Of a stretch of 64,000 bases of DNA, positions 31,853-32,401 are shown piece after piece; within the stretch, counting starts at the first letter, position 1; every line of letters starts with the position of its first letter. The DNA comes from Flavobacteriaceae bacterium (GTDB lineage: Bacteria; Bacteroidota; Bacteroidia; Flavobacteriales; Flavobacteriaceae): positions 30,711 to 94,710 of the forward strand of contig JANTGS010000001.1 in the NCBI GenBank assembly GCA_024762795.1, given 5' to 3'. The notes beneath the pieces were generated by a model that did not search any database, was not told the origin of the DNA, and was given only the letters and a program-made list of their open reading frames with translations. Position numbers and translations under genes: made by a program.

Positions 31853-32401
31853 ATGAGTATTTCAGCGTATGCTTTAGAAAACAATTACAAGGTAAAAAAG
31901 GCTATGGCCTCCAATATGATGTCAGAACTGATGCATGTGCGCAAACAGACGATAAGAGAATGTATGTCGGTTTATGATCATGAAGAGCACAGGCTGGAAG
32001 AAGTACTGAAGATCAGTGGAGTACAGTATATAAACGATTCTAAAGCTGAAAATGTTAACTCGGCATATTTTGCTCTCGATTCCATGGCGATGCCAACGGT
32101 CTGGATTGTTGGGGGAGTGAATCATAAACACGATTATGACTCGTTGATGCCTTTGGTTCGTGAAAAAGTAAAAGCGATTATTTGCCTTGGGGAAAATAAT
32201 TTTGAGATCATTCAAACCTTTGGTAATGTTGTCGATATCATGATCGAGGTGCATTCAATGGAAGAAGCTGTGCAAATAGCTTACAGACTGACAAAAAAAG
32301 GAGATGCGGTTCTGCTTTCACCGGCAGGTGAAGCAGGTGATATGTTTAGTGATTATAAAGAAAGAGGATTGAAATTTAAAGAAGCGGTAAGAAATCTGTA
32401 A
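31853..32401 (+). CDS. MurD C-terminal-domain fragment (no ATP-binding or N-terminal domain), likely catalytically dead
   Basis: 182 aa; aligns by eye only to the MurD C-terminal part (EHRLEEVLKISGVQYINDSKAENVNS..., KEAVRNL). No GxxGK(T/S) P-loop; sits in the murD position. Confidence 0.88.
   Translation: MSISAYALENNYKVKKAMASNMMSELMHVRKQTIRECMSVYDHEEHRLEEVLKISGVQYINDSKAENVNSAYFALDSMAMPTVWIVGGVNHKHDYDSLMPLVREKVKAIICLGENNFEIIQTFGNVVDIMIEVHSMEEAVQIAYRLTKKGDAVLLSPAGEAGDMFSDYKERGLKFKEAVRNL

What the first reader, a model, noticed from the sequence alone, without database searches (positions are those of the whole stretch)
31853..32401. murD reduced to a C-terminal-domain ORF with the D-Glu-contact positions substituted
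In the mraY-murD-ftsW position there is only a 182-aa ORF. It matches the MurD C-terminal region by eye (QTIRECMSVYDHEEHRLEEVLKISGVQYINDSKAENVNSAYFALDSM...VREKVKAIICLG...KEAVRNL). The N-terminal UDP-binding and central ATPase domains are gone: only 15 bp separate it from mraY and there is no GxxGK(T/S). The usual SKATN is SKAEN (E. coli Thr321 equivalent), GGVDKG-type is GGVNHK (Lys348 region), and SPACASLDxF-type is SPAGEAGDMF (Ser415/Leu416). The frame remains open and in the operon, so this is either an in-frame deletion relic or a repurposed MurD C-domain protein.
Basis: partly seen in the sequence, partly recalled or inferred. Interest (0 to 1): 0.85.

Follow-up and report, generated by a model that had tools for sequence, protein, structure and literature searches.

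The report
Conserved MurD stub; MurC also lost
A lineage of marine Flavobacteriaceae that includes cultured Lutimonas has lost both of the normally universal cell-wall enzymes MurC and MurD yet keeps a small, carefully preserved piece of MurD, so it must start its cell-wall peptides in some undescribed way.

Summary
In detail: 31853-32401 is a 182-codon in-frame MurD C-terminal domain, and no MurD catalytic part was found in the genome. It is not an assembly error or a decaying relic. All six genomes of the genus and two Lutimonas genomes carry the same 182-residue form, one of them a complete 3.53-Mb chromosome. About 80 distinct sequences are known. Selection is purifying (dN/dS mostly 0.04-0.10, highest 0.19). 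D-Glu/ATP-contact positions have drifted while the core is kept, so it is very probably non-catalytic.

In the complete genome only MurE, MurF, FolC and one MurC/Mpl-like ligase remain of the Mur fold. MurB, MurI, MraY, MurG and an L-Ala-D/L-Glu-type epimerase are kept. A second genus in another family of the order lost murC and murD too (and murI), and kept MurE, the Mpl-like ligase and an epimerase.

Best explanation (inferred, about 45%): the Mpl-like ligase loads a preformed L-Ala-D-Glu dipeptide onto UDP-MurNAc, replacing MurC and MurD in one step, and the MurD stub survives as a non-catalytic partner. No biochemistry supports this yet, and the stub's role is unknown.

The parts
31853..32401 (+). 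murD C-terminal-domain gene (182 aa), the finding
30602..31837 (+). mraY, intact, 15 bp upstream
29128..30597 (+). murE, intact; 182 of 203 columns invariant in 8 outgroup MurEs are unchanged throughout the clade
32408..33613 (+). ftsW, intact, directly downstream
   Evidence: named by position in the dcw cluster and similarity to relatives
33597..34688 (+). murG, intact
34689..34817 (.). murG-ftsQ gap where murC (about 1.35 kb) lies in relatives; no murC remnant seen
34699..34788 (+). conserved hairpin element in the murC gap: nearly invariant 18-nt leader plus long stem; found in all 8 clade genomes and only here
34818..35543 (+). ftsQ
   Evidence: FtsQ_DivIB_C, 22.4 bits

Best explanation
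In the ancestor of this genus and Lutimonas, murC was deleted and murD was cut in frame to its last 182 codons. SHOWN: the stub is a conserved protein-coding gene, its D-Glu/ATP contacts have drifted, and no other MurC or MurD was found in these genomes. INFERRED: de novo UDP-MurNAc-L-Ala-D-Glu is made by the remaining MurC/Mpl-like ligase attaching a ready-made L-Ala-D-Glu dipeptide to UDP-MurNAc; the dipeptide comes from L-Ala-L-Glu by the L-Ala-D/L-Glu-type epimerase and/or from wall turnover, and MurE and MurF then continue as usual. INFERRED, weaker: the MurD stub is kept as a non-catalytic binding partner in the dcw/Mur machinery (for MurE, the Mpl-like ligase, MraY or MurG), not as an enzyme.
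For: Short form in 6/6 genus genomes and in G046 and G276; full length (436-492 aa) in the other relatives with a match. G046 is one complete contig of 3,534,456 bp whose epimerase is 100% identical to that of Lutimonas zeaxanthinifaciens on a contig of the same length. Its only Mur_ligase_M proteins are MurE, MurF, the Mpl-like protein and FolC, while two control genomes have six; the six genus genomes show the same set or fewer. dN/dS of the stub is 0.04-0.10 in seven of eight comparisons and 0.19 in the other. Of 13 active-site columns invariant in full-length MurDs, 9 are relaxed in the stub family, against 12 of 59 other invariant columns, Fisher p=0.001. MurB, MurI and the epimerase are present. 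Independent case: genus g30 in another family. 4/4 genomes lack MurC and MurI. G034 (99% complete) also has no MurD and reads murE-mraY-ftsW-murG-ftsQ, with MurE, the Mpl-like ligase and an epimerase next to an NlpC/P60 gene kept. Losing two successive steps while MurE stays points to a block transfer of the dipeptide. A true Mpl has slight activity on L-Ala-D-Glu (1.4 per min against 260 for tripeptide; PMC3060825).
Against: No biochemical evidence. The clade's Mpl-like ligase shows no clade-specific change in its conserved motifs. Measured Mpl activity on the dipeptide is about 0.5% of that on tripeptide, at a much higher concentration. MurI is kept in Lutimonas and this genus, which the epimerase route would not need. 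The epimerase also occurs in other Flavobacteriaceae (e.g. Mariniflexile), so its presence is permissive and not diagnostic, and its best NCBIfam match (below cut-off) is an N-acetyl-D-Glu racemase. It was seen in G001, G005, G046, G276 and G034, but was not looked for in the whole window genome. g30 does without any MurD stub (G034), so the stub is not needed for such a bypass in general. An unknown ligase elsewhere is not excluded.
Confidence: 0.45

Rival explanations
1. A non-homologous ligase (or pair) not recognised by Mur-ligase models makes UDP-MurNAc-L-Ala-D-Glu from L-Ala and the D-Glu that MurI supplies; the MurD stub may be one of its subunits.
For: MurI is kept in Lutimonas and the genus; MurE is unchanged; the clade's Mpl-like ligase shows no sign of adaptation.
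Against: ATP-grasp searches (PF13535, PF08443) showed no ligase shared by the clade and missing from controls; only two ligase families were tried. The parallel loss in g30 includes murI, which a D-Glu-using ligase would not predict.
Confidence: 0.25
2. The Mpl-like ligase acts as a second MurC (adds L-Ala), and D-Glu is then added by another remaining Mur ligase, possibly with the MurD stub acting in trans as the D-Glu-binding domain.
For: The Bacteroidota protein scores better against MurC (223-249 bits) than Mpl (166-187 bits), below both cut-offs. Most stub sequences keep D317 and K319, and 40 of 81 keep K348.
Against: T321, K348 and S415 are lost in many members, including this window and Lutimonas. 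MurE shows no clade-specific active-site change. G034 of g30 has neither MurD nor the stub.
Confidence: 0.12
3. These bacteria cannot make stem peptides and depend on imported muropeptides (tripeptide or dipeptide) loaded by the Mpl-like ligase, as Tannerella forsythia depends on outside MurNAc (from my own knowledge).
For: Loss of murC and murD with the recycling-type ligase kept in two lineages.
Against: MurE and, in Lutimonas, MurI are kept; Lutimonas has named species and 3.5-4.0 Mb genomes. The medium requirement was not checked.
Confidence: 0.15
4. Artefact: the deletion is an assembly or binning error.
For: The window genome is a 208-contig assembly of 93.5% completeness.
Against: Same 182-aa form in eight genomes, including one complete chromosome, and in many independent metagenome contigs.
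Confidence: 0.01

Closest known systems
[quoted passage not shown]
   Same: Sequence, fold and operon place of the C-terminal domain; 28-38% identity to solved MurDs over that domain.
   Different: N-terminal and central domains absent, T321 replaced in 76 of 81 sequences, D-Glu and ATP contacts drifting; cannot be a MurD enzyme by itself.
Mpl, murein peptide ligase (TIGR01081)
   Same: Proposed job of the remaining ligase: joining a preformed L-Ala-starting peptide to UDP-MurNAc.
   Different: The Bacteroidota protein lacks the Mpl motifs EPRSNT and FAHH named in PMC3060825 (0 of 25; it mostly has ELHT[YF]SSLN and FAHS instead) and fits the MurC model better. Here it would serve net synthesis, not only recycling.
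L-Ala-D/L-Glu epimerase (YcjG/YkfB type, enolase superfamily)
   Same: Pfam MR_MLE domains and similarity to the L-Ala-D/L-Glu epimerase models.
   Different: Normally regarded as a catabolic muropeptide enzyme; here proposed to work toward synthesis. Specificity untested, no NCBIfam cut-off reached.
Chlamydiales without MurI (review PMC7154730)
   Same: A lipid II pathway complete except for a missing upstream D-Glu step.
   Different: Chlamydiales keep the rest of the pathway, MurC and MurD included; here MurC and MurD are what is missing.
Plastid RNA polymerase complex entries 8r6s and 8qma (Foldseek hits)
   Same: Precedent for a Mur ligase homologue in a non-wall complex (identification of the subunit as MurE-like is from my own knowledge).
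   Different: A MurE homologue in chloroplasts, not a MurD fragment in a cell-wall operon.

Membership tests
MurD enzyme | Mur ligase N-terminal (UDP-binding) domain | tested here: not met
   match starts at profile position 267
MurD enzyme | Central ATPase domain with GxxGK(T/S) | tested here: not met
   no Mur_ligase_M in the ORF; no unassigned one in the complete genome
MurD enzyme | C-terminal glutamate ligase domain fold | tested here: met
MurD enzyme | D-Glu contacts T321, K348, S415 conserved | tested here: not met
   T321 kept in 5 of 81, K348 in 40 of 81, S415 in 61 of 81; all three lost in the window
Conserved protein-coding gene (not a pseudogene) | Open frame of constant length and purifying selection across relatives | tested here: met
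Mpl (TIGR01081), for the remaining MurC-like ligase | Score above the curated cut-off of 388.7 bits | tested here: not met
   187 and 166 bits
Mpl, for the remaining MurC-like ligase | Mpl-specific C-domain residues (EPRSNT, FAHH; PMC3060825) | tested here: not met
MurC (TIGR01082), for the remaining MurC-like ligase | Score above the curated cut-off of 335.1 bits | tested here: not met
   223-249 bits
Mpl, for the remaining MurC-like ligase | Ligation of tripeptide to UDP-MurNAc | not testable with these tools
   needs enzyme assay
L-Ala-D/L-Glu epimerase | MR_MLE N and C domains above the Pfam cut-offs | tested here: met
L-Ala-D/L-Glu epimerase | NCBIfam equivalog cut-off reached | tested here: not met
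   139-154 bits against 343
Structured RNA element in the murC gap | Covariation supporting the stem | tested here: inconclusive
   95.8% of cells paired, 2 pairs with changes on both sides, only 8 sequences

The most novel reading that the evidence does not exclude
Bacteria of two separate lineages have replaced MurC and MurD in net cell-wall synthesis by a one-step transfer of an L-Ala-D-Glu dipeptide; in the Lutimonas line the MurD C-domain became a dedicated non-enzymatic wall or division factor.
Probability: 0.35. Interest if true: 0.92.

Novelty: new variant of a known kind. Interest (0 to 1): 0.82.

Why it matters
MurC and MurD are regarded as essential wherever peptidoglycan is made and are antibiotic targets. 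A lineage with named Lutimonas species that has neither offers a natural system for finding a bypass. It also gives a test of whether MurD's C-domain has a role apart from catalysis, since evolution has removed the enzyme and kept that domain. Papers found in the held library did not describe such a loss; subscription journals are largely not in it.

Tried and rejected
Assembly artefact: rejected by the complete genome and eight concordant genomes. Full-length murD or murC elsewhere: searched with PF02875, PF08245 and TIGR01082, none. Decay: rejected by dN/dS and constant length. Adapted MurE or Mpl-like ligase: aligned 8 clade with 8 outgroup MurEs and 6 clade with 19 outgroup ligases; the few clade-specific sites (MurE 37, 324, 466; ligase 179, 282) are not in the motifs, and an outgroup ligase with the same two residues as the clade belongs to a genome that has MurC and MurD. 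New ATP-grasp ligase: PF13535 gave a protein in three genus genomes that Lutimonas lacks; PF08443 gave nothing shared. The 515-aa glutamate-racemase-like frame in G000 was checked as a possible fusion but is a lipoprotein-like racemase homologue, not pursued. A C-terminal ligase fragment in G005 proved to be the Mpl-like gene cut by a contig end. 16 database entries of 182 or 183 aa with the intact HN motif were set aside, probably full-length MurDs cut by contig ends. Rfam and plasmid search for the murC-gap element: nothing.

Full report
WHAT IS THERE. The ORF at 31853-32401 is real and sits as described between mraY (stop at 31837) and ftsW (start 32408). It covers only MurD profile positions 267-440 and holds only the Mur_ligase_C domain. 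The 24 full-length Flavobacteriaceae MurDs compared have 261-288 residues before the aligned start (some counted from an upstream open frame), and 23 of 24 have a Met at exactly that column, so the new gene probably began at an existing internal ATG. AlphaFold with 58 family sequences gave pLDDT 84.8; residues from about 46 on match the C-domain of solved MurDs, and residues 3-40 are predicted as one long helix with lower confidence.

NOT AN ARTEFACT, NOT A DECAYING RELIC. All six genomes of the genus have the short form, at 62-96% identity to the window's for the other five, and no stops; the other family and order members with a match have full-length MurD. A 400-genome family search found two more short forms, G046 and G276, both of genus g42 (the list is cut, so weaker short forms could be missed). 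G046 is a single contig of 3,534,456 bp; a dipeptide epimerase taken from it is 100% identical to that of Lutimonas zeaxanthinifaciens on a contig of the same length, so g42 is Lutimonas. A protein search limited to similar lengths returned 92 entries of 182 or 183 aa among its 120 best (counted). After setting aside 16 with the canonical HN motif and joining the genome copies, 81 distinct sequences remain. They form one group in a tree of C-domains with no full-length MurD inside (84 tips, support 0.895). A tree of the neighbouring mraY, ftsW and murG keeps the two genera next to each other but, with many gaps in the data, does not by itself settle a single origin. dN/dS of the stub is 0.04-0.10 in most comparisons and 0.19 in the highest, like murG.

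THE CATALYTIC SITE HAS DRIFTED. Columns invariant in 24 full-length relatives were compared with the short family. Of 13 active-site columns 9 are relaxed or replaced, against 12 of 59 others (Fisher p=0.001). The list of active-site positions was my own choice from knowledge of E. coli MurD. H267, now F or Y in all 81, is counted by that test among the kept columns because one residue prevails, so the test is conservative there. T321 is kept in 5; K348 in 40; S415 in 61. H301, N316, D317, N322, the GG pair, the SP pair and the helix LPLVxEKVKAIICLG are kept. The window species is among the most altered. This pattern says that ligase chemistry is no longer selected while the domain is.

MURC IS GONE TOO. 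In every clade cluster examined murG is followed by ftsQ, where relatives have murC between. MurC profile hits in the genus are the Mpl-like protein, MurE and weaker ones. In the complete Lutimonas genome Mur_ligase_M occurs only in MurE, MurF, the Mpl-like ligase and FolC; two control genomes have six each. MurB is present in all five clade genomes tested, MurI in five of six genus genomes over the cut-off (the exception is 69% complete) and in both Lutimonas.

A SECOND LOSS IN ANOTHER FAMILY. In a 398-genome order search most genomes have MurC. The genus g30 (another family) lacks it in 4 of 4 genomes at 81-99% completeness. Other genomes lacking it are mostly incomplete or have relatives with it, or are tiny genomes of family f17. 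In G034 (99%) MurD is absent as well, and the cluster reads murE-mraY-ftsW-murG-ftsQ with both genes cleanly missing. All four g30 genomes also lack MurI. G034 keeps the Mpl-like ligase and MurE, and has an L-Ala-D/L-Glu-type epimerase beside an NlpC/P60 endopeptidase gene on the same contig as the cluster.

HOW IT MOST LIKELY WORKS. Two successive steps are missing while the next enzyme, MurE, is unchanged. The simplest repair is a single step that puts L-Ala-D-Glu onto UDP-MurNAc. The only remaining ligase of the MurC/Mpl type is the candidate. It is not a proven Mpl: it lies below the cut-offs of both models, scores higher with MurC, and lacks the Mpl-specific motifs (PMC3060825). The dipeptide can in principle be made from ordinary L-Ala-L-Glu by the epimerase, which is present in G046 and, at about 69% identity to it, in G001, G005 and G276. 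A true Mpl from Psychrobacter uses L-Ala-D-Glu only weakly. The loss of murI in g30 fits this route; its retention in Lutimonas is not explained by it. I put the block-transfer model at about 45%, an unknown ligase at 25%, scavenging at 15%. The role of the MurD stub is the least certain part: a scaffold or partner is favoured because substrate contacts drift while core and surface are kept, but G034 shows that a bypass can exist without it.

A SIDE FINDING. The gap left by murC holds a conserved element in all eight clade genomes, at window 34699-34788. It has an almost invariant leader AUGUGCUAAAUACU(U/G)UGG, then a stem ACUAUGGCAA / UUGCCAUAGU whose upper part differs in sequence between species but still pairs, then a U-rich end. 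Folding z-scores of four examples are -2.8 to -6.0; 95.8% of cells pair against 30-46% for slid controls, with two pairs changed on both sides. It occurs nowhere else in the 1.75 Mb searched, apart from one weak hit, and matches no Rfam family. Function unknown; a transcription attenuator or processing site before ftsQAZ is a guess.

LIMITS. Most genus genomes are metagenome assemblies. Whole-genome searches were capped, so the epimerase was not sought throughout G000 or in the control genomes, and the replacement enzyme could not be sought by whole-proteome comparison. The paper library lacks most subscription journals. No assay has been done.

Noticed in passing
window 34699-34788; L106:7408-7488 (-); L107:6545-6625 (-): Conserved RNA-like hairpin element with a nearly invariant leader in the place of the lost murC, in all eight clade genomes and unique in the sequence searched.
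   Followed up: partly
window 34699-34707: The leader of that element begins ATGTGCTAA in all eight genomes, a possible two-codon reading frame (Met-Cys-stop).
   Followed up: no
G034, G425, G436, G444 (genus g30); L202, L205: A second genus of the order lacks murC and murI (4/4) and murD (G034); MurE, the Mpl-like ligase and an epimerase beside NlpC/P60 seen in G034.
   Followed up: partly
G000, G002, G005, G046, G276 compared with G019, G078, G083, G090, G154: The strong RimK match (217-225 bits) found in all five control genomes is missing from all five clade genomes.
   Followed up: no
L148, L149, L150: An ATP-grasp protein of about 364-392 aa in three genus genomes, not in Lutimonas; a creatininase-like gene lies next to it in G005.
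   Followed up: no
L087:16591-18126 (-): A 511-aa lipoprotein-like protein containing a glutamate-racemase-like region in the window genome.
   Followed up: no
L076:19070-20002; L078:1181-2161: A PLP-dependent D-cysteine desulfhydrase/deaminase-like gene near the dcw cluster in G002 and G005, not seen in the other clade clusters.
   Followed up: no
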